From the NCBI GenBank assembly GCA_905220665.1, contig CAJNAR010000035.1, positions 62,001-126,000 of the forward strand: a DNA stretch of 64,000 nt. The letters run 5' to 3'. This document shows, piece after piece, positions 1,659 through 64,000 of the stretch. The position numbers and the translations under genes were made by a program. The stretch is from Albugo candida (taxonomy: Eukaryota > Oomycota > Peronosporomycetes > Albuginales > Albuginaceae). Each line of letters starts with the position of its first letter. The first letter of the stretch is position 1. The notes beneath the pieces are model-generated. The model made no database searches and was not told the DNA's origin. It saw only the letters and a program-made list of their open reading frames with translations.

Positions 1659-1693
1659 ATTCGAGCTTCTTATCCTGGTTTGCTTTTTATGTG

Positions 1694-12620: not shown

Positions 12621-12624
12621 GCAT

Positions 12625-17070: not shown

Positions 17071-17076
17071 CCAAAT

Positions 17077-37668: not shown

Positions 37669-37761
37669 TGCTGTATTGATGTTTTGTTGATGTACTGGGT
37701 CGAAGTTGGAAACAGAAGTGATCTCTGCGTCGGTTTTGGATGGTGAGAACGTGGAAGGCAC

Positions 37762-42163: not shown

Positions 42164-42793
42164 TTATTCAATGTGGATGTTTACCGACAAGCAGAGAATA
42201 AGGACAATCAGGATTGGGATAATGGCGACGACGATTTCAGCTGTTGCATCGGAAATTCCAACTTTGATCAGAGCTGCGACGTCGATACTTTTGAATAATC
42301 CAAGGAATACTTCCAAATCAACGATCGGAGCAGCAATAGCTGATAAATTCACAGCGCTGGAAATGCTTTGACCGTAAGATCTGAGTCCATCCATACTGTT
42401 GATTGGAGATCCAATGCCACCCGGAAGTACGATTCTAGCATTTACAAATTCGACGATCGCAATAATTGCAGCATCCATAGAGACGCAAGCTTTCCCCACC
42501 AAAGGGTTCAGATAAATTTCAAGGATGACCAGAATAACTCCCGCTGCATCAGTTTTACAACTCGCCTCCAACTCTGAATCTTTTTTCGAAGGGGTGCATT
42601 TTGTTACGAAGGTCTTGATGGGCTCAGCAATGTGGCCATCGTGGGCAGCACAGAATGAGTTTTGAAGAAAATGTGATGCAGGTGCGAGCGAAGGGATAGT
42701 CGGTAGAGATTGGTCGAGAGCGCGGAATGCGTTCTGTGCATTCCCAATTGCGAGAAGGGAAACGCCGCTGAAGAGTGCACTTTTGATAAACAT
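42164..42793 (-). CDS. Array family protein A2
   Basis: 209 aa, identical to A1 except Ala for Val in the hydrophobic tail (VVAIIPI). The surrounding monomer, including the 5' leader in which an upstream Met is open, is also almost unchanged. It belongs to the second 5.12-kb dimer. Confidence 0.8.
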   Translation of the reverse strand: MFIKSALFSGVSLLAIGNAQNAFRALDQSLPTIPSLAPASHFLQNSFCAAHDGHIAEPIKTFVTKCTPSKKDSELEASCKTDAAGVILVILEIYLNPLVGKACVSMDAAIIAIVEFVNARIVLPGGIGSPINSMDGLRSYGQSISSAVNLSAIAAPIVDLEVFLGLFKSIDVAALIKVGISDATAEIVVAIIPILIVLILCLSVNIHIE

Positions 42794-44725
42794 TGCTGTA
42801 TTGATGTTTTGTTGATGTACTGGGTCGAAGTTGGAAACAGAAGTGATCTCTGCGTCGGTTTTGGATGGTGAGAACGTGGAAGGCACCAGACGTTACTGAG
42901 ACTGCCTTTGAAGCATTACTAACTTTCTAGCACTAATATTTGTTCTCAACCGTATAAGCTGAGTTGAAACTAGAAGGAGTAATGCAGGCAACGCAAAGTG
43001 CGTGACGCCATAGAGCATAATGTTGTGAGTTATCTATTGAAAACTAGCGCAGTAATTAATACGTTAGGCACATGTTTTGTTGCGAACTAGTTTCGATCAA
43101 TGTGTTAAGGACATGTTGAGTTGTACACTCGATAAAGTAATAGTGCATGGCTTCAATCACCAATCGCAAGTTGGGGTCGCAATGAATCGCATCTGTTCGA
43201 TGATTTATATTTATGCAGGCAAATATTGACTTCAACACGGTAAAGCATCACATTAATAACTTCACACGATGTTTGTGTTCATTATAGGGTGAATGGCGCA
43301 GTTGGGAAACTTTCTAGAAGTGAGATGTTCTTTGAAGGAACAATGAGCTTTAGGAATTATTCTATGAAAACTTTATCGTTCCAAAGACGAAGACAAATGC
43401 GAGCACATAACACTTCTCTAGAACCTGTGTAGGATGCACTTAATTTTGTAAGCTCTTTCCCGTCTATCAGATCTCTAGCTTGGTATTACATCCGTCTTTT
43501 ATATCGCATCTCTGATTTGTTGAACTGACTAATCTGAGAATTTCTAAATCAAGCGACCTGAGTCCAATACTTTGCTTCTATCTGCAGCATATGCAAGAAG
43601 TATGACACCGCATCAGCAGAACAGCAATTATACGCTTGAGGCTTCTTTTTTGTTTGGCTCGAAAAGTAACCATAATCTAGATGCTTTCCAGATTCAACTC
43701 GACAAGACTTAATAGTCCTCTGATGACCACGAATGTTAGTCTGCTAAGGTTCTTATTCCGTACCTGAGCTCAGTTATGAACGTTCTCCTTACGATGCATC
43801 ACCTTAGTGGTCAATAAAGTTCGAACTAGGGCCGCATCCAGAAATAAATAAACTAGAACCGCGTAATCGACGAACCAAACAATAAGGTTGTAAACTTGAA
43901 CTGATAGAGATGCTCTGAGTGTACAATTTGAGCTTCTTTAAGAGGTGAGCGATTTCATCTATGTAGTTGCTACAAAAAGAAATCCACTTGGCTAGCCGTG
44001 ATCAGATTCAAAATTATAAGGTTTTGGTTTAAGAGGATGGGATCAAAACGGTTTGAGTAGATTCCATCTTCCTGCAGATTCTACACCCAGGTGTCATCAC
44101 TACTTTTTAGGCCTGGGCTCTTAAATTGCTCGTGAAGTTACCAAAGAATGCTCAACGACGCGTATAGTGATATCGACTCAGAGATATCTAGCAAAATTGA
44201 GATGAATCGTCAAGCATCAAAGCTCATTTGTAATTAGGACGACCAAGAGAGCTTGCAAGGAGAAGAGCGCCAGAGAAGTTTGCAGCTTTTTTTAATTCAA
44301 TGCTAGCCATGATCGGAGAGGTCTGTTCAGCAAAACACTACAAATTTCCTGGGCAATAATTTTGGCGATTTTGTCACTAGCCATCTGTCGAAACCGCACG
44401 TAAGTTCGTCAAAGATACGTTCGCCGCAAAGGCCTCAGAAGCCTCTTACATCCGTACTAGCAGTACTTCCATTTTGACACGATAATGGATGATGAATATA
44501 CTGCTAGAAGAAAAGTCCCGGATGGTAAACCTCAAAAGTTGGGGTCGGTGAATAGGTTTTCTTTCCAATGAATTCTCAAGAGGGAAACGATACATTTCGA
44601 TCCAATCAGTATGGCATTAGGTGCGATGTGCAAACGTGATCTCAATTAAAAGGTTAAAAAATTCAACGTTGAAAAGCATATTGAAAAAACACTATTACAT
44701 TTCGGTTCGTCTCTAGTAAGGAGAA

Positions 44726-45355
44726 TTATTCAATGTGGATGTTTACCGACAAGCAGAGAATAAGGACAATCAGGATTGGGATGATGGCGACGACAATTTC
44801 AGCTGTTGCATCGGAAATTCCAACTTTGATCAGAGCTGCGACGTCGATACTTTTGAATAATCCAAGGAATACTTCCAAATCAACGATCGGAGCAACAATA
44901 GCTGATAAATTCACAGCGCTGAAAATGCTTTGACCGTAAGATTTGAGTCCATCCATACTGTTGATTGGAGATCCAATGCCACCCGGAAGTACGATTCTAG
45001 CATTTACAAATGCGACGATCGCAATAATTGCAGCGTCCATAGAGATGCAAGCTTTCCCCACCAAAGGGTTCAGATAAATTTCAAGGATGACCAGAATAAC
45101 TCCCGCTGCATCAGTTTTACAACTCGCCTCCAGCTCTGAATCTTTTTTCGAAGCGGTGCATTTTGTTACGAAGGTCTTGATGGGCTCAGCAATGTGGCCA
45201 TCGTGGGCAGCACAGAATGAGTTTTGAAGAAAATGCGATGCAGGTGCGAGCGAAGGGATATTTGGTAGAGATTGGTCGAGAGCGCGGAATGCGTTCTGTG
45301 CATTCCCAATTGCGAGAAGGGAAACGCCGCTGAATAGTGCACTTTTGATAAACAT
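44726..45355 (-). CDS. Array family protein B2
   Basis: 209 aa, identical in protein sequence to B1 and B3. It is the second member of the second dimer. The leader upstream of the signal peptide carries the B-type changes that remove the upstream Met. Confidence 0.8.
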   Translation of the reverse strand: MFIKSALFSGVSLLAIGNAQNAFRALDQSLPNIPSLAPASHFLQNSFCAAHDGHIAEPIKTFVTKCTASKKDSELEASCKTDAAGVILVILEIYLNPLVGKACISMDAAIIAIVAFVNARIVLPGGIGSPINSMDGLKSYGQSIFSAVNLSAIVAPIVDLEVFLGLFKSIDVAALIKVGISDATAEIVVAIIPILIVLILCLSVNIHIE

Positions 45356-47289
45356 TGCTGTATTGATGTTTTGTTGATGTACTGGGTCGAAGTTGGAAAC
45401 AGAAGTGATCTCTGCGTCGGTTTTGGATGGGGGAGAACGAGGAAACCAGCTGGGCGTTACAAAGACTGCCTTTGAAGCATTACTAACTTTCTAGCACTGA
45501 TATTTGTTCTCACCAGTATAAGCTGAGATGAAACCAGAAGGAGTAATGCAGCAACGCAAAGTGCGTTACGCCATAGAGCATAATGTTGTGAATTGTCTAT
45601 TGAGTACTAGCGCAGTAATTCATACGTTAGGCACATGTTTTGTTGCGAACTAGTTTCGATCAATGAGTTATGGACATGTTGAGTTGTACACTCGATAAAG
45701 TAATGGTGCATGGCTTCAATCACCAATCGCAAGTTGCGGTGCATGCTTAGCGCAATGAATCGCATCTGTTCGATGGTTTCAATCACTCTGATATTTGTGC
45801 AGGCAAATATTGACTTGTACATGGTGAAGCATCACACCACCAGCTTCATACGATGTTTGTGTTTATTATAGGGTCAATGGCGCAGTTGGGAAACTTTCTA
45901 GAAGTGAGATGTTCTTTGAAGCAACAATGAGCTTTAGGAATTATTCTATGAAAACTTGATCGTTCAAAGACGAAGACAAATGCGAGCACATAACACTTCT
46001 CTAGAACCTGTGTAGGATGCGCTTAATTTTGTAAGCTCTTTTTCGTCTATCAGATTTCTAGCTTGGTATTACTTCCGCCTTATATCGCATCGTTGATTTG
46101 TTGAACTGACTAATCTGAGAATTTCTAAATCAAGCGACCTGAGTCCAACACTTTGCTACTATCTGGAGTATATGCAAGAAGTATGACACCGCATCAGCAG
46201 ACCAGCAATTATACGCTTGAGGCTTCTTTTTTGTTTGGCTCGAAAAGTAACCATAGATGCTTTCCAGATTCAACTCGAGAAGACTTAGTATTTCTCTGAT
46301 GACCACGAATGTTAGTCTGCTAAGGTTCTTATTCCGTACCTGAGCTCAGTTATGAACGTTCTCACCTTAGTGGTCAATAAAGTTCGAACTAGGGCCGCAT
46401 CCAGAAATAAATAAACTAGAACCGCGTAATCGACGAACCAAACAATAAGGTTGTAAACTTGAAGTGATAGAGATGCTATGAGTGTACAATTTGAGCTTTT
46501 CAAGGGATGATCGAGTTCATCTATGTAGTTGCTACAAAAAGAAATCCACTTGGCTAGCCGTGATCAGATTCAAAATTATAAGGTTTTGGTTTAAGAGGAT
46601 GGGATCAAAACGGTTTGAGTAGATTCCATCTTCCTGTAGATTCTACACTCAGGTGTCACCACTACTTTTTAGGCCTGGGCTCTTAAATTGCTCGTGAAGT
46701 TACCAAAGAATGCTCAACGACGCGTATAGTGATATCGACTCAGAGATATCTAGCACAATTAAGATGAATCGTCAAGCATTAAAGCTCATTCGTAATTCGC
46801 GCAACCAAGAGAGCTTGCGAGAAGAAGGGCGCCAGAGAAGTTTGCAGCTTTATTTGTTCCAAAAATACGAGCCAAGATCGGAGAGGTCTGTTCAGCAAAA
46901 ACCACAAATTTCCTGTGCAATAATTTTGGCGATTTTGTCACTAGCCATCTGTCGAAATCGCACGTAAGTTCGTCAAAGATACGTTCGCCGCAAAGGCCTC
47001 AGAAGCCTCTTACATCCGTACTAGCAGTACTTCCATTTTGACACGATAATGGATGATGAATATACTGCTAGAAGAAAAGTCCCGGAGGGTAAACCTCAAA
47101 AGTTGGGGTCGGTGAATAGGTTTTCTTTCCAATGAATTCTCAAGAGGGAAACGATACATTTGGATCCAATCAGTATGGCATTAGGTGCGATGTGCAAACG
47201 TGATCTCAATTAAAAGGTTAAAAAATTCAACGTTGAAAAGCATATTGAAAAAACACTATTACATTTCGGTTCGTCTCTAGTAAGGAGAA

Positions 47290-47919
47290 TTATTCAATGT
47301 GGATGTTTACCGACAAGCAGAGAATAAGGACAATCAGGATTGGGATGATGGCGACGACAATTTCAGCTGTTGCATCGGAAATTCCAACTTTGATCAGAGC
47401 TGCGACGTCGATACTTTTGAATAATCCAAGGAATACTTCCAAATCAACGATCGGAGCAACAATAGCTGATAAATTCACAGCGCTGAAAATGCTTTGACCG
47501 TAAGATTTGAGTCCATCCATACTGTTGATTGGAGATCCAATGCCACCCGGAAGTACGATTCTAGCATTTACAAATGCGACGATCGCAATAATTGCAGCGT
47601 CCATAGAGATGCAAGCTTTCCCCACCAAAGGGTTCAGATAAATTTCAAGGATGACCAGAATAACTCCCGCTGCATCAGTTTTACAACTCGCCTCCAGCTC
47701 TGAATCTTTTTTCGAAGCGGTGCATTTTGTTACGAAGGTCTTGATGGGCTCAGCAATGTGGCCATCGTGGGCAGCACAGAATGAGTTTTGAAGAAAATGC
47801 GATGCAGGTGCGAGCGAAGGGATATTCGGTAGAGATTGGTCGAGAGCGCGGAATGCGTTCTGTGCATTCCCAATTGCGAGAAGGGAAACGCCGCTGAATA
47901 GTGCACTTTTGATAAACAT
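47290..47919 (-). CDS. Array family protein B3
   Basis: 209 aa, identical in protein sequence to B1 and B2, with synonymous changes (for example near 47826). It is placed one monomer (2,564 bp) after B2, so two B-type monomers stand side by side and the A-B alternation breaks here. Upstream (rightwards) of its leader the spacer departs from the B consensus, marking the right edge of array 1. Confidence 0.8.
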   Translation of the reverse strand: MFIKSALFSGVSLLAIGNAQNAFRALDQSLPNIPSLAPASHFLQNSFCAAHDGHIAEPIKTFVTKCTASKKDSELEASCKTDAAGVILVILEIYLNPLVGKACISMDAAIIAIVAFVNARIVLPGGIGSPINSMDGLKSYGQSIFSAVNLSAIVAPIVDLEVFLGLFKSIDVAALIKVGISDATAEIVVAIIPILIVLILCLSVNIHIE

Positions 47920-48059
47920 TGCTGTATTGATGTTTTGTTGATGTACTGGGTCGAAGTTGGAAACAGAAGTGATCTCTGCGTCGGTTTTGGATGGGGGAGA
48001 ACGAGGAAACCAGCTGGGCGTTACAAAGACTGCCTTTGAAGCATTACTAACTTTCTAGC

Positions 48060-49080
48060 ACTGATATTTGTTCTCAACCGAATAAGCTGAGTTGAAACTA
48101 GAAGGAGTAATGCACGCAACGCAAAGTGCGTGACGCCATCGAGCATAATGTTGCGAGTTATCTATTGAATACTAGCGCAGTAATTAGTACGTTAGGCACA
48201 TGTTTTGTTGCGAACTAGTTTCGATCAATGAGTTATGGACATGTTGAGTTGTACACTCGATAAAGTAATGGTGCATGGCTTCAATCACCAATCGCAAGTT
48301 GGGGTCGCAATGAATCGCATCTGTTCGATGGTTTCAATCACTCTGATATTTGTGCAGGCAAATATTGACTTCTACATGGTGAAACATGACACCGCTAGCT
48401 TCATGCGATGTTTGCATTTATTATAGGGTCAATAGCGCACCTGGGAAACTTTGTAGAGGCGGGATGTTCTCTAAAGCAAAAACGAGCTTTGTAAATTTCT
48501 GTTCGGAAACTTGATCGCTCCAAAGTCGAAGACAAACGCGAGCACATAACACTTCTCTAGAGCCTGTGTAGGATGCACTTAGTTTTGTAAGCTCTCTAAC
48601 GTCTATCAGATTTCTAGCTTAGTATTACATCCGCCTTATATCGCATCGTTGATTTGTTGAACTGACAAATCTGAGAATTTCCAAATCAAGCGACCTGAGT
48701 TCAATACTTTGCTTCTATCTGGAGTATATTGCAAGAAGTATGCATCGCATCAGCAGACCAGCAATTATACGCTTGAGGCTTCTTTTTTTGTTTGGCTAAG
48801 CAAGTAATCCTTATCTGTGATTCAGTATGTCATACGTTCGCGTTATCAATTTTTTGTAGAACCTTACGTCCCGAGCCAGTCAATTGACAAATCAGGGTAT
48901 TTATTCTAAAGAAACACCGCTGCAATGCAATTCAAGCTACTCAACTCGAAAAGGCCTATGGGTCATCTCATGACCACAAATGAAAATCTGTTCTCACAGA
49001 CATAGAGAAGATCAAACGTAAAAACTCCTATGCGTATACTTAACCATCTATTTGCAGGGGTGGGTGAGATGTTGCTCAGG
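48060..49080. other. Transition between the two arrays
   Basis: 48060-48800 is a diverged array-1 spacer that can be followed word by word against 40380-41110 but with many substitutions. 48800-49080 is largely unique. From about 49080 the 1,687-bp unit of array 2 begins, at first with mismatches and a one-base insertion. No gene is supported. A 63-codon frame at 48235 is a by-product of the spacer sequence. Confidence 0.6.
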
Positions 49081-49323
49081 AAACTCGCCTATAAAATCAA
49101 GAAAGGGTTTTAGCTGGCTTCAAATGTTCTTTTCCCTTACACATGGACGTCAGTCGCCCAACATTTTGTGCCATCAAGGCGATAAAGGAACATTAGACTA
49201 GAATGGTTGACCAGCCAGTTGCTCTCGCCAATGCCAAGCCAATCAAAGCAAAACAATGCAACACGTGTTTCACAAAAAAGATCCATTTAAAGAAAAATAC
49301 TGGATTCCCGTTGGTGAGGGACC

Positions 49324-49950
49324 CTAACCTATGTGAATGTTTACTGACAAGCAGAAAATCAGTACCAACAGGATTGGCATGATGGCGACGACTATGCCAG
49401 CTGATATATCGCTGATTCCAACCTTGATAAGAGCAGAAACGTCGATCTTCAGGAATAGTTGAATAAAAGCCTCCACACCAACAAACGGAACAGCAAAAGT
49501 CGATAATCCCAAAACGCTGGAAATACTTTGACCGTATATTGAGAGCCCTTCCAAAGTAGTGATGGAAGCGTCAACCGCAGCAGGAAGGACGAGTTTACCG
49601 TGGACAAGTTCTACAACTGCACGAATTGCAACATCCAAAGAGATGCAAGCTTCCACCGCCAAAGGCTGTAGATAGATTTTGAGGATGATATGAAGGATTA
49701 CCGGTGCATCATCATGACAACTTGGCGCAATCTGACAGTCCTTTGCCCAACAGGCACAATTCTTCATGAAAGAGTTGAATGTCTCATCAACGTGTCCTTC
49801 AATGGAAGCACAAACTGGATTTCTTATAAATGGCAATGCAGGTGGGAGGAATGTGGGATTTGGTACCAAGTGGAGAGCGCGAAATGTATTCTGCGCATTT
49901 CCAATGATAAATAGAGAAACGCAGCTCAGGAGTGATTTTGTGGTAAACAT
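49324..49950 (-). CDS. Array family protein C1: secreted, C-terminally anchored
   Basis: 208 aa from the Met opening the signal peptide (MFTTKSLLSCVSLFIIGNAQ). An in-frame Met 37 codons upstream exists, but its residues do not look like a signal and correspond to the leader of the A/B genes. The C type is roughly half identical to A/B. Best conserved are the signal peptide (ending IGNAQN-x-FRAL), YGQSISS in the middle, and the end (ALIKVGISD, then the hydrophobic tail and NIHI). The middle has two more cysteines than A/B, in the cluster NCACWAKDC...SC. Tail function (membrane span or GPI signal) and overall role are unknown. The downstream spacer of C1 carries a one-base insertion relative to the other units. 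Confidence 0.8.
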   Translation of the reverse strand: MFTTKSLLSCVSLFIIGNAQNTFRALHLVPNPTFLPPALPFIRNPVCASIEGHVDETFNSFMKNCACWAKDCQIAPSCHDDAPVILHIILKIYLQPLAVEACISLDVAIRAVVELVHGKLVLPAAVDASITTLEGLSIYGQSISSVLGLSTFAVPFVGVEAFIQLFLKIDVSALIKVGISDISAGIVVAIMPILLVLIFCLSVNIHIG

Positions 49951-50061
49951 TGCTGTATTGTTGTGATCGAGTCGTACGAAGTTGAAGGGAAGCACAAAAG
50001 TGAGATCTGCATCAATTTTTGGTGCGGGTAAACATGAAAAACCACCTGTGAAATTGGGCAA

Positions 50062-51010
50062 GATTTGATTGCATTAGTAACCTTACAAGTTTGATGTTGT
50101 CTCTACCAAACAAAACCTGAGTTGATATCACCAGCAGTAATGTCAGCAACACGTGCGGAATTGAACGGTACGGAATAAGATGATGTGATCACATGTTGGA
50201 TGACTCTATATCTTTTCTCAATTCTGGAAAGCCATGCGCTTGACGCAGGGATGCGAATGGTTCCCGATCACTTGCTTGTCTCACAAGCTTGAAGAAGGTA
50301 TTGGCGTTTTTTGTCACAAATTGACCCGGTTAGTGAAGAACGTGGCAGTACAAACGTGCTGCATGTTTATAAATTAGAATAGTGTGCAAACAGAGGCCCC
50401 TCTTTCTTTCAGAACTTTCTTCCTTGCACGCATGCACTTTTACAAGAGCGCTGGAGGAGGATCTCAGTGCAACTTCTCGCATGAAAATCACAAAATGAAT
50501 TCACTTTTTTAGTTAGGAGTGATTTAGCAAGTTCGGAGTGCTTCTCGTCTCATAAATCCATTTCTAATGGTATTTATTTAAGCCCGATGTAGGAAGCTGT
50601 CCGAATGTGCGTTATTGAACGGCGCTCTGTCACTTGAATTTTGTGTGCAGCAGCTTATTTAAAGCGTCTTCAGAGGTTTGGCTGGAAACTTGTGAATGAA
50701 GAGTAAAGACTTTGTATTCTCTCGCAGCGCTGAAATAATTGCTTCCTATTCGTGAGAGGCTGCTTAAGAAACTGATCTAAAGAATCAAGAAAGGGTTTTA
50801 GCTGGCTTCACATGTTCTTTTCCCGTACACATGGACGTCAGTCGCCCAACTTTTGTGCCATCAAGGCGATAAGGGAACATTAGACTAGAATGGTTGACCA
50901 GCCAGTTGCTCTCGCCAATGCCAAGCCAATCAAAGCAAAACAATGCAACACGTGTTTCACAAAAAAGATCCATTTAAAGAAAAATACTGGATTCCCGTTG
51001 GTGAGGGACC
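50062..51010. repeat. Spacer of array 2 (representative)
   Basis: About 0.95 kb between the leader of one C gene and the stop of the next, repeated in every unit. A 62-codon minus-strand frame begins 38 nt after each stop (50973-50785 here) and is identical in eight units, but the C1 unit carries an indel in it. The array is too young for conservation to mean selection. Sites that vary between units include cct(t/g)gcacgc (about 50430) and ggcgc(t/c)ctg (about 50630). Confidence 0.65.
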
Positions 51011-51637
51011 CTAACCTATGTGAATGTTTACTGACAAGCAGAAAATCAGTACCAACAGGATTGGCATGATGGCGACGACTATGCCAGCTGATATATCGCT
51101 GATTCCAACCTTGATAAGAGCAGAAACGTCGATCTTCAGGAATAGTTGAATAAAAGCCTCCACACCAACAAACGGAACAGCAAAAGTCGATAATCCCAAA
51201 ACGCTGGAAATACTTTGACCGTATATTGAGAGCCCTTCCAAAGTAGTGATGGAAGCGTCAACCGCAGCAGGAAGGACGAGTTTACCGTGGACAAGTTCTA
51301 CAACTGCACGAATTGCAACATCCAAAGAGATGCAAGCTTCCACCGCCAAAGGCTGTAGATAGATTTTGAGGATGATATGAAGGATTACCGGTGCATCATC
51401 ATGACAACTTGGCGCAATCTGACAGTCCTTTGCCCAACAGGCACAATTCTTCATGAAAGAGTTGAATGTCTCATCAACGTGTCCTTCAATGGAAGCACAA
51501 ACTGGATTTCTTATAAATGGCAATGCAGGTGGGAGGAATGTGGGATTTGGTACCAAGTGGAGAGCGCGAAATGTATTCTGCGCATTTCCAATGATAAATA
51601 GAGAAACGCTGCTCAGGAGTGATTTTGTGGTAAACAT
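51011..51637 (-). CDS. Array family protein C2
   Basis: 208 aa; as C1 but with Ser for Cys at the tenth residue of the signal peptide (LLSSVS). Its unit has the 'cctggcacgc' and 'gcgctctg' spacer variants. Confidence 0.8.
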   Translation of the reverse strand: MFTTKSLLSSVSLFIIGNAQNTFRALHLVPNPTFLPPALPFIRNPVCASIEGHVDETFNSFMKNCACWAKDCQIAPSCHDDAPVILHIILKIYLQPLAVEACISLDVAIRAVVELVHGKLVLPAAVDASITTLEGLSIYGQSISSVLGLSTFAVPFVGVEAFIQLFLKIDVSALIKVGISDISAGIVVAIMPILLVLIFCLSVNIHIG

Positions 51638-52697
51638 TGCTGTATTGTTGTGATCGAGTCGTACGAAGTTGAAGGGAAGCACAAAAGTGAGATCTGCATC
51701 AATTTTTGGTGCGGGTAAACATGAAAAACCACCTGTGAAATTGGGCAAGATTTGATTGCATTAGTAACCTTACAAGTTTGATGTTGTCTCTACCAAACAA
51801 AACCTGAGTTGATATCACCAGCAGTAATGTCAGCAACACGTGCGGAATTGAACGGTACGGAATAAGATGATGTGATCACATGTTGGATGACTCTATATCT
51901 TTTCTCAATTCTGGAAAGCCATGCGCTTGACGCAGGGATGCGAATGGTTCCCGATCACTTGCTTGTCTCACAAGCTTGAAGAAGGTATTGGCGTTTTTTG
52001 TCACAAATTGACCCGGTTAGTGAAGAACGTGGCAGTACAAACGTGCTGCATGTTTATAAATTAGAATAGTGTGCAAACAGAGGCCCCTCTTTCTTTCAGA
52101 ACTTTCTTCCTGGCACGCATGCACTTTTACAAGAGCGCTGGAGGAGGATCTCAGTGCAACTTCTCGCATGAAAATCACAAAATGAATTCACTTTTTTAGT
52201 TAGGAGTGATTTAGCAAGTTCGGAGTGCTTCTCGTCTCATAAATCCATTTCTAATGGTATTTATTTAAGCCCGATGTAGGAAGCTGTCCGAATGTGCGTT
52301 ATTGAACGGCGCTCTGTCACTTGAATTTTGTGTGCAGCAGCTTATTTAAAGCGTCTTCAGAGGTTTGGCTGGAAACTTGTGAATGAAGAGTAAAGACTTT
52401 GTATTCTCTCGCAGCGCTGAAATAATTGCTTCCTATTCGTGAGAGGCTGCTTAAGAAACTGATCTAAAGAATCAAGAAAGGGTTTTAGCTGGCTTCACAT
52501 GTTCTTTTCCCGTACACATGGACGTCAGTCGCCCAACTTTTGTGCCATCAAGGCGATAAGGGAACATTAGACTAGAATGGTTGACCAGCCAGTTGCTCTC
52601 GCCAATGCCAAGCCAATCAAAGCAAAACAATGCAACACGTGTTTCACAAAAAAGATCCATTTAAAGAAAAATACTGGATTCCCGTTGGTGAGGGACC

Positions 52698-53324
52698 CTA
52701 ACCTATGTGAATGTTTACTGACAAGCAGAAAATCAGTACCAACAGGATTGGCATGATGGCGACGACTATGCCAGCTGATATATCGCTGATTCCAACCTTG
52801 ATAAGAGCAGAAACGTCGATCTTCAGGAATAGTTGAATAAAAGCCTCCACACCAACAAACGGAACAGCAAAAGTCGATAATCCCAAAACGCTGGAAATAC
52901 TTTGACCGTATATTGAGAGCCCTTCCAAAGTAGTGATGGAAGCGTCAACCGCAGCAGGTAGGACGAGTTTACCGTGGACAAGTTCTACAACTGCACGAAT
53001 TGCAACATCCAAAGAGATGCAAGCTTCCACCGCCAAAGGCTGTAGATAGATTTTGAGGATGATATGAAGGATTACCGGTGCATCATCATGACAACTTGGC
53101 GCAATCTGACAGTCCTTTGCCCAACAGGCACAATTCTTCATGAAAGAGTTGAATGTCTCATCAACGTGTCCTTCAATGGAAGCACAAACTGGATTTCTTA
53201 TAAATGGCAATGCAGGTGGGAGGAATGTGGGATTTGGTACCAAGTGGAGAGCGCGAAATGTATTCTGCGCATTTCCAATGATAAATAGAGAAACGCAGCT
53301 CAGGAGTGATTTTGTGGTAAACAT
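52698..53324 (-). CDS. Array family protein C3
   Basis: 208 aa; protein identical to C1. It carries a synonymous Leu change (gcaggtagg at about 52955) shared only with C8. Its spacer has 'ccttgcacgc'. Confidence 0.8.
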   Translation of the reverse strand: MFTTKSLLSCVSLFIIGNAQNTFRALHLVPNPTFLPPALPFIRNPVCASIEGHVDETFNSFMKNCACWAKDCQIAPSCHDDAPVILHIILKIYLQPLAVEACISLDVAIRAVVELVHGKLVLPAAVDASITTLEGLSIYGQSISSVLGLSTFAVPFVGVEAFIQLFLKIDVSALIKVGISDISAGIVVAIMPILLVLIFCLSVNIHIG

Positions 53325-54384
53325 TGCTGTATTGTTGTGATCGAGTCGTACGAAGTTGAAGGGAAGCACAAAAGTGAGATCTGCATCAATTTTTGGTGCG
53401 GGTAAACATGAAAAACCACCTGTGAAATTGGGCAAGATTTGATTGCATTAGTAACCTTACAAGTTTGATGTTGTCTCTACCAAACAAAACCTGAGTTGAT
53501 ATCACCAGCAGTAATGTCAGCAACACGTGCGGAATTGAACGGTACGGAATAAGATGATGTGATCACATGTTGGATGACTCTATATCTTTTCTCAATTCTG
53601 GAAAGCCATGCGCTTGACGCAGGGATGCGAATGGTTCCCGATCACTTGCTTGTCTCACAAGCTTGAAGAAGGTATTGGCGTTTTTTGTCACAAATTGACC
53701 CGGTTAGTGAAGAACGTGGCAGTACAAACGTGCTGCATGTTTATAAATTAGAATAGTGTGCAAACAGAGGCCCCTCTTTCTTTCAGAACTTTCTTCCTTG
53801 CACGCATGCACTTTTACAAGAGCGCTGGAGGAGGATCTCAGTGCAACTTCTCGCATGAAAATCACAAAATGAATTCACTTTTTTAGTTAGGAGTGATTTA
53901 GCAAGTTCGGAGTGCTTCTCGTCTCATAAATCCATTTCTAATGGTATTTATTTAAGCCCGATGTAGGAAGCTGTCCGAATGTGCGTTATTGAACGGCGCT
54001 CTGTCACTTGAATTTTGTGTGCAGCAGCTTATTTAAAGCGTCTTCAGAGGTTTGGCTGGAAACTTGTGAATGAAGAGTAAAGACTTTGTATTCTCTCGCA
54101 GCGCTGAAATAATTGCTTCCTATTCGTGAGAGGCTGCTTAAGAAACTGATCTAAAGAATCAAGAAAGGGTTTTAGCTGGCTTCACATGTTCTTTTCCCGT
54201 ACACATGGACGTCAGTCGCCCAACTTTTGTGCCATCAAGGCGATAAGGGAACATTAGACTAGAATGGTTGACCAGCCAGTTGCTCTCGCCAATGCCAAGC
54301 CAATCAAAGCAAAACAATGCAACACGTGTTTCACAAAAAAGATCCATTTAAAGAAAAATACTGGATTCCCGTTGGTGAGGGACC

Positions 54385-55011
54385 CTAACCTATGTGAATG
54401 TTTACTGACAAGCAGAAAATCAGTACCAACAGGATTGGCATGATGGCGACGACTATGCCAGCTGATATATCGCTGATTCCAACCTTGATAAGAGCAGAAA
54501 CGTCGATCTTCAGGAATAGTTGAATAAAAGCCTCCACACCAACAAACGGAACAGCAAAAGTCGATAATCCCAAAACGCTGGAAATACTTTGACCGTATAT
54601 TGAGAGCCCTTCCAAAGTAGTGATGGAAGCGTCAACCGCAGCAGGAAGGACGAGTTTACCGTGGACAAGTTCTACAACTGCACGAATTGCAACATCCAAA
54701 GAGATGCAAGCTTCCACCGCCAAAGGCTGTAGATAGATTTTGAGGATGATATGAAGGATTACCGGTGCATCATCATGACAACTTGGCGCAATCTGACAGT
54801 CCTTTGCCCAACAGGCACAATTCTTCATGAAAGAGTTGAATGTCTCATCAACGTGTCCTTCAATGGAAGCACAAACTGGGTTTCTTATAAATGGCAATGC
54901 AGGTGGGAGGAATGTGGGATTTGGTACCAAGTGGAGAGCGCGAAATGTATTCTGCGCATTTCCAATGATAAATAGAGAAACGCAGCTCAGGAGTGATTTT
55001 GTGGTAAACAT
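54385..55011 (-). CDS. Array family protein C4
   Basis: 208 aa; protein identical to C1. A synonymous Asn codon change at about 54890 is shared with C5 and C6. The spacer has 'gcgccctg', also shared with C5 and C6. Confidence 0.8.
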   Translation of the reverse strand: MFTTKSLLSCVSLFIIGNAQNTFRALHLVPNPTFLPPALPFIRNPVCASIEGHVDETFNSFMKNCACWAKDCQIAPSCHDDAPVILHIILKIYLQPLAVEACISLDVAIRAVVELVHGKLVLPAAVDASITTLEGLSIYGQSISSVLGLSTFAVPFVGVEAFIQLFLKIDVSALIKVGISDISAGIVVAIMPILLVLIFCLSVNIHIG

Positions 55012-56071
55012 TGCTGTATTGTTGTGATCGAGTCGTACGAAGTTGAAGGGAAGCACAAAAGTGAGATCTGCATCAATTTTTGGTGCGGGTAAACATGAAA
55101 AACCACCTGTGAAATTGGGCAAGATTTGATTGCATTAGTAACCTTACAAGTTTGATGTTGTCTCTACCAAACAAAACCTGAGTTGATATCACCAGCAGTA
55201 ATGTCAGCAACACGTGCGGAATTGAACGGTACGGAATAAGATGATGTGATCACATGTTGGATGACTCTATATCTTTTCTCAATTCTGGAAAGCCATGCGC
55301 TTGACGCAGGGATGCGAATGGTTCCCGATCACTTGCTTGTCTCACAAGCTTGAAGAAGGTATTGGCGTTTTTTGTCACAAATTGACCCGGTTAGTGAAGA
55401 ACGTGGCAGTACAAACGTGCTGCATGTTTATAAATTAGAATAGTGTGCAAACAGAGGCCCCTCTTTCTTTCAGAACTTTCTTCCTGGCACGCATGCACTT
55501 TTACAAGAGCGCTGGAGGAGGATCTCAGTGCAACTTCTCGCATGAAAATCACAAAATGAATTCACTTTTTTAGTTAGGAGTGATTTAGCAAGTTCGGAGT
55601 GCTTCTCGTCTCATAAATCCATTTCTAATGGTATTTATTTAAGCCCGATGTAGGAAGCTGTCCGAATGTGCGTTATTGAACGGCGCCCTGTCACTTGAAT
55701 TTTGTGTGCAGCAGCTTATTTAAAGCGTCTTCAGAGGTTTGGCTGGAAACTTGTGAATGAAGAGTAAAGACTTTGTATTCTCTCGCAGCGCTGAAATAAT
55801 TGCTTCCTATTCGTGAGAGGCTGCTTAAGAAACTGATCTAAAGAATCAAGAAAGGGTTTTAGCTGGCTTCACATGTTCTTTTCCCGTACACATGGACGTC
55901 AGTCGCCCAACTTTTGTGCCATCAAGGCGATAAGGGAACATTAGACTAGAATGGTTGACCAGCCAGTTGCTCTCGCCAATGCCAAGCCAATCAAAGCAAA
56001 ACAATGCAACACGTGTTTCACAAAAAAGATCCATTTAAAGAAAAATACTGGATTCCCGTTGGTGAGGGACC

Positions 56072-56698
56072 CTAACCTATGTGAATGTTTACTGACAAGC
56101 AGAAAATCAGTACCAACAGGATTGGCATGATGGCGACGACTATGCCAGCTGATATATCGCTGATTCCAACCTTGATAAGAGCAGAAACGTCGATCTTCAG
56201 GAATAGTTGAATAAAAGCCTCCACACCAACAAACGGAACAGCAAAAGTCGATAATCCCAAAACGCTGGAAATACTTTGACCGTATATTGAGAGCCCTTCC
56301 AAAGTAGTGATGGAAGCGTCAACCGCAGCAGGAAGGACGAGTTTACCGTGGACAAGTTCTACAACTGCACGAATTGCAACATCCAAAGAGATGCAAGCTT
56401 CCACCGCCAAAGGCTGTAGATAGATTTTGAGGATGATATGAAGGATTACCGGTGCATCATCATGACAACTTGGCGCAATCTGACAGTCCTTTGCCCAACA
56501 GGCACAATTCTTCATGAAAGAGTTGAATGTCTCCTCAACGTGTCCTTCAATGGAAGCACAAACTGGGTTTCTTATAAATGGCAATGCAGGTGGGAGGAAT
56601 GTGGGATTTGGTACCAAGTGGAGAGCGCGAAATGTATTCTGCGCATTTCCAATGATAAATAGAGAAACGCAGCCCAGGAGTGATTTTGTGGTAAACAT
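56072..56698 (-). CDS. Array family protein C5 (most diverged unit)
   Basis: 208 aa. Two amino-acid changes within the protein set it apart: Gly for Ser in the signal peptide (LLGCVS) and Glu for Asp in GHVEETF. A third change (Arg to Gln) lies in the leader upstream of the presumed start. Otherwise as C4. Confidence 0.8.
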   Translation of the reverse strand: MFTTKSLLGCVSLFIIGNAQNTFRALHLVPNPTFLPPALPFIRNPVCASIEGHVEETFNSFMKNCACWAKDCQIAPSCHDDAPVILHIILKIYLQPLAVEACISLDVAIRAVVELVHGKLVLPAAVDASITTLEGLSIYGQSISSVLGLSTFAVPFVGVEAFIQLFLKIDVSALIKVGISDISAGIVVAIMPILLVLIFCLSVNIHIG

Positions 56699-57758
56699 TG
56701 CTGTATTGTTGTGATCGAGTTGTACGAAGTTGAAGGGAAGCACAAAAGTGAGATCTGCATCAATTTTTGGTGCGGGTAAACATGAAAAACCACCTGTGAA
56801 ATTGGGCAAGATTTGATTGCATTAGTAACCTTACAAGTTTGATGTTGTCTCTACCAAACAAAACCTGAGTTGATATCACCAGCAGTAATGTCAGCAACAC
56901 GTGCGGAATTGAACGGTACGGAATAAGATGATGTGATCACATGTTGGATGACTCTATATCTTTTCTCAATTCTGGAAAGCCATGCGCTTGACGCAGGGAT
57001 GCGAATGGTTCCCGATCACTTGCTTGTCTCACAAGCTTGAAGAAGGTATTGGCGTTTTTTGTCACAAATTGACCCGGTTAGTGAAGAACGTGGCAGTACA
57101 AACGTGCTGCATGTTTATAAATTAGAATAGTGTGCAAACAGAGGCCCCTCTTTCTTTCAGAACTTTCTTCCTGGCACGCATGCACTTTTACAAGAGCGCT
57201 GGAGGAGGATCTCAGTGCAACTTCTCGCATGAAAATCACAAAATGAATTCACTTTTTTAGTTAGGAGTGATTTAGCAAGTTCGGAGTGCTTCTCGTCTCA
57301 TAAATCCATTTCTAATGGTATTTATTTAAGCCCGATGTAGGAAGCTGTCCGAATGTGCGTTATTGAACGGCGCCCTGTCACTTGAATTTTGTGTGCAGCA
57401 GCTTATTTAAAGCGTCTTCAGAGGTTTGGCTGGAAACTTGTGAATGAAGAGTAAAGACTTTGTATTCTCTCGCAGCGCTGAAATAATTGCTTCCTATTCG
57501 TGAGAGGCTGCTTAAGAAACTGATCTAAAGAATCAAGAAAGGGTTTTAGCTGGCTTCACATGTTCTTTTCCCGTACACATGGACGTCAGTCGCCCAACTT
57601 TTGTGCCATCAAGGCGATAAGGGAACATTAGACTAGAATGGTTGACCAGCCAGTTGCTCTCGCCAATGCCAAGCCAATCAAAGCAAAACAATGCAACACG
57701 TGTTTCACAAAAAAGATCCATTTAAAGAAAAATACTGGATTCCCGTTGGTGAGGGACC

Positions 57759-58385
57759 CTAACCTATGTGAATGTTTACTGACAAGCAGAAAATCAGTAC
57801 CAACAGGATTGGCATGATGGCGACGACTATGCCAGCTGATATATCGCTGATTCCAACCTTGATAAGAGCAGAAACGTCGATCTTCAGGAATAGTTGAATA
57901 AAAGCCTCCACACCAACAAACGGAACAGCAAAAGTCGATAATCCCAAAACGCTGGAAATACTTTGACCGTATATTGAGAGCCCTTCCAAAGTAGTGATGG
58001 AAGCGTCAACCGCAGCAGGAAGGACGAGTTTACCGTGGACAAGTTCTACAACTGCACGAATTGCAACATCCAAAGAGATGCAAGCTTCCACCGCCAAAGG
58101 CTGTAGATAGATTTTGAGGATGATATGAAGGATTACCGGTGCATCATCATGACAACTTGGCGCAATCTGACAGTCCTTTGCCCAACAGGCACAATTCTTC
58201 ATGAAAGAGTTGAATGTCTCATCAACGTGTCCTTCAATGGAAGCACAAACTGGGTTTCTTATAAATGGCAATGCAGGTGGGAGGAATGTGGGATTTGGTA
58301 CCAAGTGGAGAGCGCGAAATGTATTCTGCGCATTTCCAATGATAAATAGAGAAACGCAGCTCAGGAGTGATTTTGTGGTAAACAT
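57759..58385 (-). CDS. Array family protein C6
   Basis: 208 aa; protein identical to C1 and C4, with the silent and spacer variants of the C4-C6 group. Confidence 0.8.
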   Translation of the reverse strand: MFTTKSLLSCVSLFIIGNAQNTFRALHLVPNPTFLPPALPFIRNPVCASIEGHVDETFNSFMKNCACWAKDCQIAPSCHDDAPVILHIILKIYLQPLAVEACISLDVAIRAVVELVHGKLVLPAAVDASITTLEGLSIYGQSISSVLGLSTFAVPFVGVEAFIQLFLKIDVSALIKVGISDISAGIVVAIMPILLVLIFCLSVNIHIG

Positions 58386-59445
58386 TGCTGTATTGTTGTG
58401 ATCGAGTCGTACGAAGTTGAAGGGAAGCACAAAAGTGAGATCTGCATCAATTTTTGGTGCGGGTAAACATGAAAAACCACCTGTGAAATTGGGCAAGATT
58501 TGATTGCATTAGTAACCTTACAAGTTTGATGTTGTCTCTACCAAACAAAACCTGAGTTGATATCACCAGCAGTAATGTCAGCAACACGTGCGGAATTGAA
58601 CGGTACGGAATAAGATGATGTGATCACATGTTGGATGACTCTATATCTTTTCTCAATTCTGGAAAGCCATGCGCTTGACGCAGGGATGCGAATGGTTCCC
58701 GATCACTTGCTTGTCTCACAAGCTTGAAGAAGGTATTGGCGTTTTTTGTCACAAATTGACCCGGTTAGTGAAGAACGTGGCAGTACAAACGTGCTGCATG
58801 TTTATAAATTAGAATAGTGTGCAAACAGAGGCCCCTCTTTCTTTCAGAACTTTCTTCCTGGCACGCATGCACTTTTACAAGAGCGCTGGAGGAGGATCTC
58901 AGTGCAACTTCTCGCATGAAAATCACAAAATGAATTCACTTTTTTAGTTAGGAGTGATTTAGCAAGTTCGGAGTGCTTCTCGTCTCATAAATCCATTTCT
59001 AATGGTATTTATTTAAGCCCGATGTAGGAAGCTGTCCGAATGTGCGTTATTGAACGGCGCCCTGTCACTTGAATTTTGTGTGCAGCAGCTTATTTAAAGC
59101 GTCTTCAGAGGTTTGGCTGGAAACTTGTGAATGAAGAGTAAAGACTTTGTATTCTCTCGCAGCGCTGAAATAATTGCTTCCTATTCGTGAGAGGCTGCTT
59201 AAGAAACTGATCTAAAGAATCAAGAAAGGGTTTTAGCTGGCTTCACATGTTCTTTTCCCGTACACATGGACGTCAGTCGCCCAACTTTTGTGCCATCAAG
59301 GCGATAAGGGAACATTAGACTAGAATGGTTGACCAGCCAGTTGCTCTCGCCAATGCCAAGCCAATCAAAGCAAAACAATGCAACACGTGTTTCACAAAAA
59401 AGATCCATTTAAAGAAAAATACTGGATTCCCGTTGGTGAGGGACC

Positions 59446-60072
59446 CTAACCTATGTGAATGTTTACTGACAAGCAGAAAATCAGTACCAACAGGATTGGC
59501 ATGATGGCGACGACTATGCCAGCTGATATATCGCTGATTCCAACCTTGATAAGAGCAGAAACGTCGATCTTCAGGAATAGTTGAATAAAAGCCTCCACAC
59601 CAACAAACGGAACAGCAAAAGTCGATAATCCCAAAACGCTGGAAATACTTTGACCGTATATTGAGAGCCCTTCCAAAGTAGTGATGGAAGCGTCAACCGC
59701 AGCAGGAAGGACGAGTTTACCGTGGACAAGTTCTACAACTGCACGAATTGCAACATCCAAAGAGATGCAAGCTTCCACCGCCAAAGGCTGTAGATAGATT
59801 TTGAGGATGATATGAAGGATTACCGGTGCATCATCATGACAACTTGGCGCAATCTGACAGTCCTTTGCCCAACAGGCACAATTCTTCATGAAAGAGTTGA
59901 ATGTCTCATCAACGTGTCCTTCAATGGAAGCACAAACTGGATTTCTTATAAATGGCAATGCAGGTGGGAGGAATGTGGGATTTGGTACCAAGTGGAGAGC
60001 GCGAAATGTATTCTGCGCATTTCCAATGATAAATAGAGAAACGCAGCTCAGGAGTGATTTTGTGGTAAACAT
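59446..60072 (-). CDS. Array family protein C7
   Basis: 208 aa; protein identical to C1. The spacer combines 'cctggcacgc' (as C2, C4-C6, C9) with 'gcgctctg' (as C1-C3, C8). Confidence 0.8.
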   Translation of the reverse strand: MFTTKSLLSCVSLFIIGNAQNTFRALHLVPNPTFLPPALPFIRNPVCASIEGHVDETFNSFMKNCACWAKDCQIAPSCHDDAPVILHIILKIYLQPLAVEACISLDVAIRAVVELVHGKLVLPAAVDASITTLEGLSIYGQSISSVLGLSTFAVPFVGVEAFIQLFLKIDVSALIKVGISDISAGIVVAIMPILLVLIFCLSVNIHIG

Positions 60073-61132
60073 TGCTGTATTGTTGTGATCGAGTCGTACG
60101 AAGTTGAAGGGAAGCACAAAAGTGAGATCTGCATCAATTTTTGGTGCGGGTAAACATGAAAAACCACCTGTGAAATTGGGCAAGATTTGATTGCATTAGT
60201 AACCTTACAAGTTTGATGTTGTCTCTACCAAACAAAACCTGAGTTGATATCACCAGCAGTAATGTCAGCAACACGTGCGGAATTGAACGGTACGGAATAA
60301 GATGATGTGATCACATGTTGGATGACTCTATATCTTTTCTCAATTCTGGAAAGCCATGCGCTTGACGCAGGGATGCGAATGGTTCCCGATCACTTGCTTG
60401 TCTCACAAGCTTGAAGAAGGTATTGGCGTTTTTTGTCACAAATTGACCCGGTTAGTGAAGAACGTGGCAGTACAAACGTGCTGCATGTTTATAAATTAGA
60501 ATAGTGTGCAAACAGAGGCCCCTCTTTCTTTCAGAACTTTCTTCCTGGCACGCATGCACTTTTACAAGAGCGCTGGAGGAGGATCTCAGTGCAACTTCTC
60601 GCATGAAAATCACAAAATGAATTCACTTTTTTAGTTAGGAGTGATTTAGCAAGTTCGGAGTGCTTCTCGTCTCATAAATCCATTTCTAATGGTATTTATT
60701 TAAGCCCGATGTAGGAAGCTGTCCGAATGTGCGTTATTGAACGGCGCTCTGTCACTTGAATTTTGTGTGCAGCAGCTTATTTAAAGCGTCTTCAGAGGTT
60801 TGGCTGGAAACTTGTGAATGAAGAGTAAAGACTTTGTATTCTCTCGCAGCGCTGAAATAATTGCTTCCTATTCGTGAGAGGCTGCTTAAGAAACTGATCT
60901 AAAGAATCAAGAAAGGGTTTTAGCTGGCTTCACATGTTCTTTTCCCGTACACATGGACGTCAGTCGCCCAACTTTTGTGCCATCAAGGCGATAAGGGAAC
61001 ATTAGACTAGAATGGTTGACCAGCCAGTTGCTCTCGCCAATGCCAAGCCAATCAAAGCAAAACAATGCAACACGTGTTTCACAAAAAAGATCCATTTAAA
61101 GAAAAATACTGGATTCCCGTTGGTGAGGGACC

Positions 61133-61759
61133 CTAACCTATGTGAATGTTTACTGACAAGCAGAAAATCAGTACCAACAGGATTGGCATGATGGCGACGA
61201 CTATGCCAGCTGATATATCGCTGATTCCAACCTTGATAAGAGCAGAAACGTCGATCTTCAGGAATAGTTGAATAAAAGCCTCCACACCAACAAACGGAAC
61301 AGCAAAAGTCGATAATCCCAAAACGCTGGAAATACTTTGACCGTATATTGAGAGCCCTTCCAAAGTAGTGATGGAAGCGTCAACCGCAGCAGGTAGGACG
61401 AGTTTACCGTGGACAAGTTCTACAACTGCACGAATTGCAACATCCAAAGAGATGCAAGCTTCCACCGCCAAAGGCTGTAGATAGATTTTGAGGATGATAT
61501 GAAGGATTACCGGTGCATCATCATGACAACTTGGCGCAATCTGACAGTCCTTTGCCCAACAGGCACAATTCTTCATGAAAGAGTTGAATGTCTCATCAAC
61601 GTGTCCTTCAATGGAAGCACAAACTGGATTTCTTATAAATGGCAATGCAGGTGGGAGGAATGTGGGATTTGGTACCAAGTGGAGAGCGCGAAATGTATTC
61701 TGCGCATTTCCAATGATAAATAGAGAAACGCTGCTCAGGAGTGATTTTGTGGTAAACAT
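61133..61759 (-). CDS. Array family protein C8
   Basis: 208 aa; Ser variant in the signal peptide (as C2 and C9) together with the silent gcaggtagg change (as C3). This combination is not found in any other unit. Confidence 0.8.
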   Translation of the reverse strand: MFTTKSLLSSVSLFIIGNAQNTFRALHLVPNPTFLPPALPFIRNPVCASIEGHVDETFNSFMKNCACWAKDCQIAPSCHDDAPVILHIILKIYLQPLAVEACISLDVAIRAVVELVHGKLVLPAAVDASITTLEGLSIYGQSISSVLGLSTFAVPFVGVEAFIQLFLKIDVSALIKVGISDISAGIVVAIMPILLVLIFCLSVNIHIG

Positions 61760-62819
61760 TGCTGTATTGTTGTGATCGAGTCGTACGAAGTTGAAGGGAA
61801 GCACAAAAGTGAGATCTGCATCAATTTTTGGTGCGGGTAAACATGAAAAACCACCTGTGAAATTGGGCAAGATTTGATTGCATTAGTAACCTTACAAGTT
61901 TGATGTTGTCTCTACCAAACAAAACCTGAGTTGATATCACCAGCAGTAATGTCAGCAACACGTGCGGAATTGAACGGTACGGAATAAGATGATGTGATCA
62001 CATGTTGGATGACTCTATATCTTTTCTCAATTCTGGAAAGCCATGCGCTTGACGCAGGGATGCGAATGGTTCCCGATCACTTGCTTGTCTCACAAGCTTG
62101 AAGAAGGTATTGGCGTTTTTTGTCACAAATTGACCCGGTTAGTGAAGAACGTGGCAGTACAAACGTGCTGCATGTTTATAAATTAGAATAGTGTGCAAAC
62201 AGAGGCCCCTCTTTCTTTCAGAACTTTCTTCCTTGCACGCATGCACTTTTACAAGAGCGCTGGAGGAGGATCTCAGTGCAACTTCTCGCATGAAAATCAC
62301 AAAATGAATTCACTTTTTTAGTTAGGAGTGATTTAGCAAGTTCGGAGTGCTTCTCGTCTCATAAATCCATTTCTAATGGTATTTATTTAAGCCCGATGTA
62401 GGAAGCTGTCCGAATGTGCGTTATTGAACGGCGCTCTGTCACTTGAATTTTGTGTGCAGCAGCTTATTTAAAGCGTCTTCAGAGGTTTGGCTGGAAACTT
62501 GTGAATGAAGAGTAAAGACTTTGTATTCTCTCGCAGCGCTGAAATAATTGCTTCCTATTCGTGAGAGGCTGCTTAAGAAACTGATCTAAAGAATCAAGAA
62601 AGGGTTTTAGCTGGCTTCACATGTTCTTTTCCCGTACACATGGACGTCAGTCGCCCAACTTTTGTGCCATCAAGGCGATAAGGGAACATTAGACTAGAAT
62701 GGTTGACCAGCCAGTTGCTCTCGCCAATGCCAAGCCAATCAAAGCAAAACAATGCAACACGTGTTTCACAAAAAAGATCCATTTAAAGAAAAATACTGGA
62801 TTCCCGTTGGTGAGGGACC

Positions 62820-63446
62820 CTAACCTATGTGAATGTTTACTGACAAGCAGAAAATCAGTACCAACAGGATTGGCATGATGGCGACGACTATGCCAGCTGA
62901 TATATCGCTGATTCCAACCTTGATAAGAGCAGAAACGTCGATCTTCAGGAATAGTTGAATAAAAGCCTCCACACCAACAAACGGAACAGCAAAAGTCGAT
63001 AATCCCAAAACGCTGGAAATACTTTGACCGTATATTGAGAGCCCTTCCAAAGTAGTGATGGAAGCGTCAACCGCAGCAGGAAGGACGAGTTTACCGTGGA
63101 CAAGTTCTACAACTGCACGAATTGCAACATCCAAAGAGATGCAAGCTTCCACCGCCAAAGGCTGTAGATAGATTTTGAGGATGATATGAAGGATTACCGG
63201 TGCATCATCATGACAACTTGGCGCAATCTGACAGTCCTTTGCCCAACAGGCACAATTCTTCATGAAAGAGTTGAATGTCTCATCAACGTGTCCTTCAATG
63301 GAAGCACAAACTGGATTTCTTATAAATGGCAATGCAGGTGGGAGGAATGTGGGATTTGGTACCAAGTGGAGAGCGCGAAATGTATTCTGCGCATTTCCAA
63401 TGATAAATAGAGAAACGCTGCTCAGGAGTGATTTTGTGGTAAACAT
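62820..63446 (-). CDS. Array family protein C9
   Basis: 208 aa; identical to C2 in protein and in the variant sites checked (Ser signal variant, gcaggaagg, 'cctggcacgc'). The unit is cut by the window end, so its full spacer and any further copies are not visible. Confidence 0.8.
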   Translation of the reverse strand: MFTTKSLLSSVSLFIIGNAQNTFRALHLVPNPTFLPPALPFIRNPVCASIEGHVDETFNSFMKNCACWAKDCQIAPSCHDDAPVILHIILKIYLQPLAVEACISLDVAIRAVVELVHGKLVLPAAVDASITTLEGLSIYGQSISSVLGLSTFAVPFVGVEAFIQLFLKIDVSALIKVGISDISAGIVVAIMPILLVLIFCLSVNIHIG

Positions 63447-64000
63447 TGCTGTATTGTTGTGATCGAGTCGTACGAAGTTGAAGGGAAGCACAAAAGTGAG
63501 ATCTGCATCAATTTTTGGTGCGGGTAAACATGAAAAACCACCTGTGAAATTGGGCAAGATTTGATTGCATTAGTAACCTTACAAGTTTGATGTTGTCTCT
63601 ACCAAACAAAACCTGAGTTGATATCACCAGCAGTAATGTCAGCAACACGTGCGGAATTGAACGGTACGGAATAAGATGATGTGATCACATGTTGGATGAC
63701 TCTATATCTTTTCTCAATTCTGGAAAGCCATGCGCTTGACGCAGGGATGCGAATGGTTCCCGATCACTTGCTTGTCTCACAAGCTTGAAGAAGGTATTGG
63801 CGTTTTTTGTCACAAATTGACCCGGTTAGTGAAGAACGTGGCAGTACAAACGTGCTGCATGTTTATAAATTAGAATAGTGTGCAAACAGAGGCCCCTCTT
63901 TCTTTCAGAACTTTCTTCCTGGCACGCATGCACTTTTACAAGAGCGCTGGAGGAGGATCTCAGTGCAACTTCTCGCATGAAAATCACAAAATGAATTCAC

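What the first reader, a model, noticed from the sequence alone, without database searches (positions are those of the whole stretch)
49080..64000. Nine-gene, 1,687-bp tandem array of an unrecognised secreted and C-terminally anchored protein
Seen: nine almost identical units, each with one 208-aa gene that has a signal peptide, a cysteine cluster and a hydrophobic C-terminus ending in NIHIG, all on one strand and continuing past the window. Inference: selection for high dose or recent runaway amplification of a surface or secreted protein, which in a plant-parasitic oomycete could be an effector or wall component. I recognise no known family. Collapsed or expanded assembly is a risk for such an array.
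Basis: partly seen in the sequence, partly recalled or inferred. Interest (0 to 1): 0.85.

Follow-up and report, generated by a model that had tools for sequence, protein, structure and literature searches.

The report
Subtelomeric arrays of Albugo secreted-protein genes
A white-rust plant parasite carries, near one chromosome end, two neighbouring runs of almost identical genes for a secreted, probably membrane-anchored protein seen so far only in its genus; the likeliest reason is amplification for high dose, a known habit of this group of parasites, here with an unstudied protein.

Summary
The array is real. Nine head-to-tail 1,687-bp units, each with one intact 208-codon gene on the minus strand, fill 49064-64000. 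It runs on to its contig's end and resumes at the start of another contig: 14 intact genes plus one interrupted copy, with the assembly broken inside, so the true number is unknown. The contig begins with a telomere, so the locus is subtelomeric. The organism is Albugo candida. Searches reach only Albugo-like relatives; no Pfam or PDB family matches, and RXLR, CHXC and CCG motifs are absent. A conserved signal peptide and hydrophobic C-terminal tail flank a faster-changing, cysteine-bearing core. Best reading: a secreted, membrane-anchored parasite protein amplified for dose and homogenised by unequal exchange. Anchoring and dose are inferred; expression is untested. Tandem near-identical secreted-protein genes are known in oomycetes (PMC2661136, PMC3130010): a new member of a known kind.

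The parts
49064..64000 (-). Array T1: nine 1,687-bp units in the window; continues to C35:128066 and resumes at C166:1-8327
49324..49950 (-). T1 gene 1 (208 aa, first/edge unit)
51011..51637 (-). T1 gene 2
52698..53324 (-). T1 gene 3 (used as reference)
54385..55011 (-). T1 gene 4
56072..56698 (-). T1 gene 5 (carries S9G and D55E)
57759..58385 (-). T1 gene 6
59446..60072 (-). T1 gene 7
61133..61759 (-). T1 gene 8
62820..63446 (-). T1 gene 9
53371..53377 (-). INR-like core promoter element YCAYTYY 53 nt before the ATG of T1 gene 3; same place in 6 of 6 upstream regions examined
   Evidence: motif definition from PMC3599244 passages
36509..48641 (-). Array T2: five ~2.56-kb units of the paralogue, subtypes in the order A B A B B (approximate limits)
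37039..37668 (-). T2 gene 1 (209 aa, subtype A)
39602..40231 (-). T2 gene 2 (subtype B)
42164..42793 (-). T2 gene 3 (subtype A)
44726..45355 (-). T2 gene 4 (subtype B)
47290..47919 (-). T2 gene 5 (subtype B)

Best explanation
A subtelomeric locus of Albugo candida in which two paralogues of an Albugo-specific secreted protein have each been amplified in tandem. Each T1 unit is a complete gene with its own promoter and about 1 kb of spacer. Unequal crossing-over and gene conversion between units keep the copies near-identical and change their number (inferred from the sequence pattern). Each gene makes a protein with a cleaved signal peptide of about 19 residues, a short proline-rich stretch, a helical core with two or three disulfides, and a conserved hydrophobic C-terminal segment that holds it to the parasite's membrane, as a transmembrane or GPI-type anchor (inferred). 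The likeliest reason for keeping so many copies is dose of an abundant protein at the parasite surface or host interface (inferred). Shown: the arrays, their near-identity, coding conservation, relatives in Albugo, telomere linkage. Not shown: transcription, anchoring, role in infection.
For: Array anatomy and near-identity. The two most informative sites of T1 (unit positions 562 and 900) occur in all four combinations among core units, as exchange between units would give; the edge units carry the most differences, 15 columns in the first and 12 in the last. T2 alternates A B A B B with A and B genes 13-15 differences apart in 630 and same-type genes 0-1 apart. Coding: T1 against T2 differ at 64/49/82 sites by codon position (p=0.015), dN/dS about 0.52, one in-frame codon length difference, and relatives P0003-P0005 align over nearly the whole protein. 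Ends conserved, core faster: dN/dS 0.26 in the signal peptide and 0.27 in the tail against 0.73 at residues 46-110. Two cysteines (67 and 72) are missing together in all five T2 genes examined, as a lost disulfide would be. INR-like promoter element at -53 in 6 of 6. Telomere repeats fill the first 259 bp of the contig. Other datasets hold the T1 protein on 19 contigs, none longer than 1,742 bp, which is one unit plus 55, as a collapsed perfect array would give, while single-copy ZPR1 reaches 67,253 bp (inference). Codon adaptation of T1/T2 (0.64-0.68) exceeds that of eight other window genes (0.58-0.63) with a reference of only three genes.
Against: No transcript, protein or depth data could be reached. 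GC3 is ordinary (0.41-0.43) and the codon signal is weak; a first attempt with a faulty reference set had one window gene (S28 peptidase, 0.712) above the arrays (0.702-0.706). Subtelomeres amplify genes without selection, so dose is not needed to explain the array. GPI rules find no site in P0003. The tail could be part of a soluble or pore-like fold. Both structure models are poor (pLDDT 46.7 and 36.9). Dn/dS near 0.5 is only moderate constraint, and regional values rest on few changes.
Confidence: 0.5

Rival explanations
1. Neutral subtelomeric amplification: unequal exchange near the chromosome end multiplied a dispensable gene, and copy number has no benefit.
For: Telomere at the contig end, 111 kb from the array; inverted duplications of up to 1.5 kb in the same region; one interrupted and one degenerate copy.
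Against: Two paralogue lineages at 51% identity were amplified side by side; 20 of 22 copies found are intact (14 T1 + 6 T2, against one interrupted and one degenerate); purifying signal between them.
Confidence: 0.27
2. A host-translocated effector family of a new motif class, multiplied as other oomycete avirulence genes are.
For: Secreted, cysteine-bearing, genus-specific, tandem near-identical copies as for P. sojae Avr1a (PMC2661136 abstract) and two A. laibachii RXLR candidates in repeats (PMC3130010 passages).
Against: RXLR/Q, CHXC and CX2CX5G absent in 12 of 12 sequences; the conserved hydrophobic tail suggests retention on the parasite; copies are homogenised, not diversified.
Confidence: 0.15
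3. Assembly artefact: the array is shorter or longer than shown, or its two halves are not joined.
For: Both contigs break inside the array, with a damaged copy next to the break.
Against: Units carry distinct variants; C35 is not a duplicate haplotype by one test, the kinesin gene being found once; T1 contigs in other datasets are about one unit long.
Confidence: 0.06
4. An intracellular or other membrane protein, not exported to the surface, that happens to start with a hydrophobic segment.
For: The whole protein is hydrophobic (mean hydropathy 0.94 outside the signal); no signal-peptide program was available.
Against: Signal-like start with conserved NAQ site in all full-length members; extracellular-style conserved cysteines.
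Confidence: 0.08

Closest known systems
Phytophthora sojae Avr1a / Avr3a tandem copies (PMC2661136, abstract and outline seen)
   Same: Near-identical tandem copies of a secreted oomycete gene, one per segment (Avr1a: four copies of a 5.2-kb segment)
   Different: There four copies of RXLR effectors with shown avirulence; here at least 14 plus 5 copies, no RXLR motif, hydrophobic C-terminus, no function shown
RXLR candidates in repeat regions of Albugo laibachii (PMC3130010, passages seen)
   Same: Same genus; a secreted-protein candidate inside ~10 conserved repeats in isolate Nc14 and ~6 in Em1, another among more than 80 diverged repeats
   Different: Those are RXLR candidates; this family has no R.L[RQ] match. 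Whether either repeat is a relative could not be checked
Albugo CCG (CX2CX5G, formerly CHXC) effectors (PMC10087428 and PMC3130010, passages seen)
   Same: Secreted, cysteine-bearing, Albugo, multi-gene (about 80-100 per race)
   Different: Motif absent here; CCG genes diversify, these are homogenised
Elicitins (Pfam PF00964)
   Same: Secreted oomycete proteins with cysteines; helical (recalled)
   Different: No Pfam match; the 21 elicitin matches of this genome lie on other contigs than C35 and C166
A. laibachii AlNc14C94G5809 (P0004), P0003, P0005
   Same: Same family, 43-50% identity to the window's genes
   Different: P0004 is an unnamed 178-aa prediction lacking the signal peptide; no paper in the library names it

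Membership tests
RXLR/RXLQ effectors | R.L[RQ] in the N-terminal part after the signal peptide (regex from PMC4384639 passage) | tested here: not met
   0 of 12 sequences, searched over the whole length
CHXC / CCG effectors of Albugo | CX2CX5G, or CHXC within 50 aa of the signal peptide | tested here: not met
   0 of 12 sequences for either
Elicitins (PF00964) | Match to the Pfam model | tested here: not met
   0 of 10 members match any Pfam model at E<=10; no PF00964 match on C35 or C166
GPI-anchored surface proteins | Signal peptide, small omega site, hydrophobic cleaved C-terminus | tested here: inconclusive
   Hydrophobic tail in 3 of 3 members profiled; candidate omega site in 4 of 5; a strongly conserved tail is unusual for a cleaved signal (recalled); no predictor available
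Tandem near-identical secreted-gene arrays of oomycetes | Head-to-tail, near-identical segments, each with a secreted-protein gene | tested here: met
Tandem near-identical secreted-gene arrays of oomycetes | Copy number differs between strains and affects infection | not testable with these tools
   No other race's genome or reads could be searched

The most novel reading that the evidence does not exclude
The family is a dominant surface coat or host-interface protein of Albugo: a subtelomeric, rRNA-like amplified gene bank kept uniform by concerted evolution, whose copy number sets dose and varies between races, and which short-read genomes hid by collapsing it to one unit.
Probability: 0.2. 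Interest if true: 0.72.

Novelty: new member of a known kind. Interest (0 to 1): 0.45.

Why it matters
A 454-based study reported that the largest secreted family of A. candida had six members (PMC3206522, passage); here one unnamed family has 20 intact copies at one chromosome end, though CCG genes are more numerous (about 80-100 per race, PMC10087428 passage). If expressed, it would be a candidate abundant surface or interface protein of an obligate parasite that cannot be cultured easily, and its copy number would be a simple marker to compare between races. Twin arrays of two paralogues offer a test of selection for dose against neutral subtelomeric amplification.

Full report
Observation. 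The window's last 15 kb is a perfect-period tandem array. Nine ORFs of 208 aa lie on the minus strand at 1,687-bp spacing, and the eight other units are 99.15-99.94% identical to the unit at 52398-54084. The array begins at 49064. It does not end at the window: the window is bases 62001-126000 of contig C35, which ends at 128066 inside the array; contig C166 (980,552 bp) starts inside the same repeat, in the same orientation, and leaves it at base 8327. C35 holds 10.1 units and C166 4.9. If the two ends face each other, which was not shown, the locus has 15 units or more, with a gap of unknown size. A protein search of the genome gave 23 matches: 14 intact T1 genes (9 on C35, 5 on C166), one T1 copy in two pieces next to the C35 end, 6 intact T2 genes, and one degenerate copy on C150. 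The damaged copy sits next to a contig end and may be an assembly error.

A second array. They are 51% identical to T1. They fall into two subtypes in the order A B A B B: same-type genes differ at 0 or 1 of 630 bases, A and B genes at 13-15. A sixth copy lies at C35:33183, about 65 kb towards the other end of the contig.

Where it is. The ZPR1 protein of the window (26814-28391) is 99% identical to one named Albugo candida and 87% to A. laibachii. The first 259 bases of C35 are CCCTAAA repeats (35 hits), so the T1 array starts 111 kb from a chromosome end. The kinesin gene of the window is found once in the assembly, so by this one test C35 is not a second haplotype of another contig.

It is coding. 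T1 and T2 differ at 64, 49 and 82 sites in codon positions 1, 2 and 3 (p=0.015) and have dN/dS near 0.52. Their one length difference is a codon. Three proteins from outside this assembly, one named A. laibachii AlNc14C94G5809, align at 43-50% identity. The upstream 250 bp are alignable between T1 and T2; an INR-like element YCAYTYY lies 53 nt before the ATG in 6 of 6 regions (background 0.17 per 100 nt per strand), near the median 50-nt distance between transcription start and ATG reported for Phytophthora infestans (PMC3599244 passages). T1 and T2 are homologous, so this is one conserved observation, not six.

The protein. By eye it has a signal peptide ending at NA|QN (no predictor was available). 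Cysteines 47, 65, 78, 102 and 200 are kept in 12 of 12 sequences; 67 and 72 are missing together in the five T2 genes examined and in P0002, which suggests that they pair. The last 24 residues have hydropathy up to 2.96 in T1 and are the most conserved region against T2 (79%) and P0004 (67%), highest against P0005 (58%) and tied against P0003 (58%). dN/dS between T1 and T2 is 0.26 in the signal peptide, 0.27 in the tail and 0.73 in residues 46-110, from few changes each. Conserved targeting ends with a freer exposed core fit an anchored surface protein. A simple recalled rule finds a GPI site in 4 of 5 members. A cleaved GPI tail need not keep residues such as the invariant proline and CLSV, so a true transmembrane tail is as likely.

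Family. Pfam: 0 of 2 and 0 of 10 at E<=10. PDB: nothing below E 0.08. In the large protein collection, 4 proteins by single search (356 candidates) and 5 by alignment (7,996 candidates scored), the only one with a species name being Albugo. RXL[RQ], CHXC and CX2CX5G: 0 of 12. Structure models are too poor to use.

How the array evolves. Among 12 core units (first, last and damaged units left out) there are 8 variable sites: 5 in the gene (2 silent; S9G and C10S in the signal peptide; D55E) and 3 outside. Sites 562 and 900 occur in all four combinations, and the edge units hold 15 and 12 differing columns. This is what unequal exchange and conversion give; short-read polishing of an assembly could also blur such sites. 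Elsewhere the T1 protein is recorded on 19 contigs with a longest of 1,742 bp, that is 1,687+55, while ZPR1 reaches 67,253. I read this as collapsed arrays in other datasets; the +55 match to an assembler word length is recalled and could be chance.

Function. The dose hypothesis is the best of several. For it: two lineages amplified side by side, 20 of 22 copies intact, slight codon bias towards actin, eEF1A and a ribosomal protein (T1 0.64, T2 0.67-0.68; eight other window genes 0.58-0.63; the references themselves 0.67-0.76). Against it: no expression data, ordinary GC3, and a locus where amplification may be neutral.

Comparison with print. P. sojae Avr1a is a tandem array of four 5.2-kb copies, and multiple near-identical RXLR copies are said to be prevalent (PMC2661136 abstract). 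A. laibachii has an RXLR candidate in about 10 conserved repeats in Nc14 and 6 in Em1, and another among more than 80 (PMC3130010 passages). So the kind is known; the family, its copy number and its subtelomeric twin arrays are the new part, as far as could show, with the long-read Ac2V paper not held.

Noticed in passing
window 1-18521: Four inverted-repeat pairs in the first 36.5 kb, the longest 1,528 nt at 99% (2754-4281 with 12611-14138), duplicating pieces of an S28 peptidase gene and of a Sec23/24-like gene; scrambled subtelomeric duplication.
   Followed up: partly
window 8815-9633, 14500-15255; C35:60030-60845: A second secreted-looking family without Pfam match at E<=0.001: 12 matches in the genome, 3 on C35 and 5 on C173.
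   Followed up: partly
[quoted passage not shown] candida assembly (PMC3206522 passage).
   Followed up: no
C150:391646-392080: A degenerate relative of the array gene, 40% identical with six stops, away from the subtelomere of C35.
   Followed up: no
P0003, P0004, P0005: The outside relatives look like mosaics of one another (P0005 matches P0003 in one stretch and P0004 in another), hinting at exchange among copies in a sister species.
   Followed up: no
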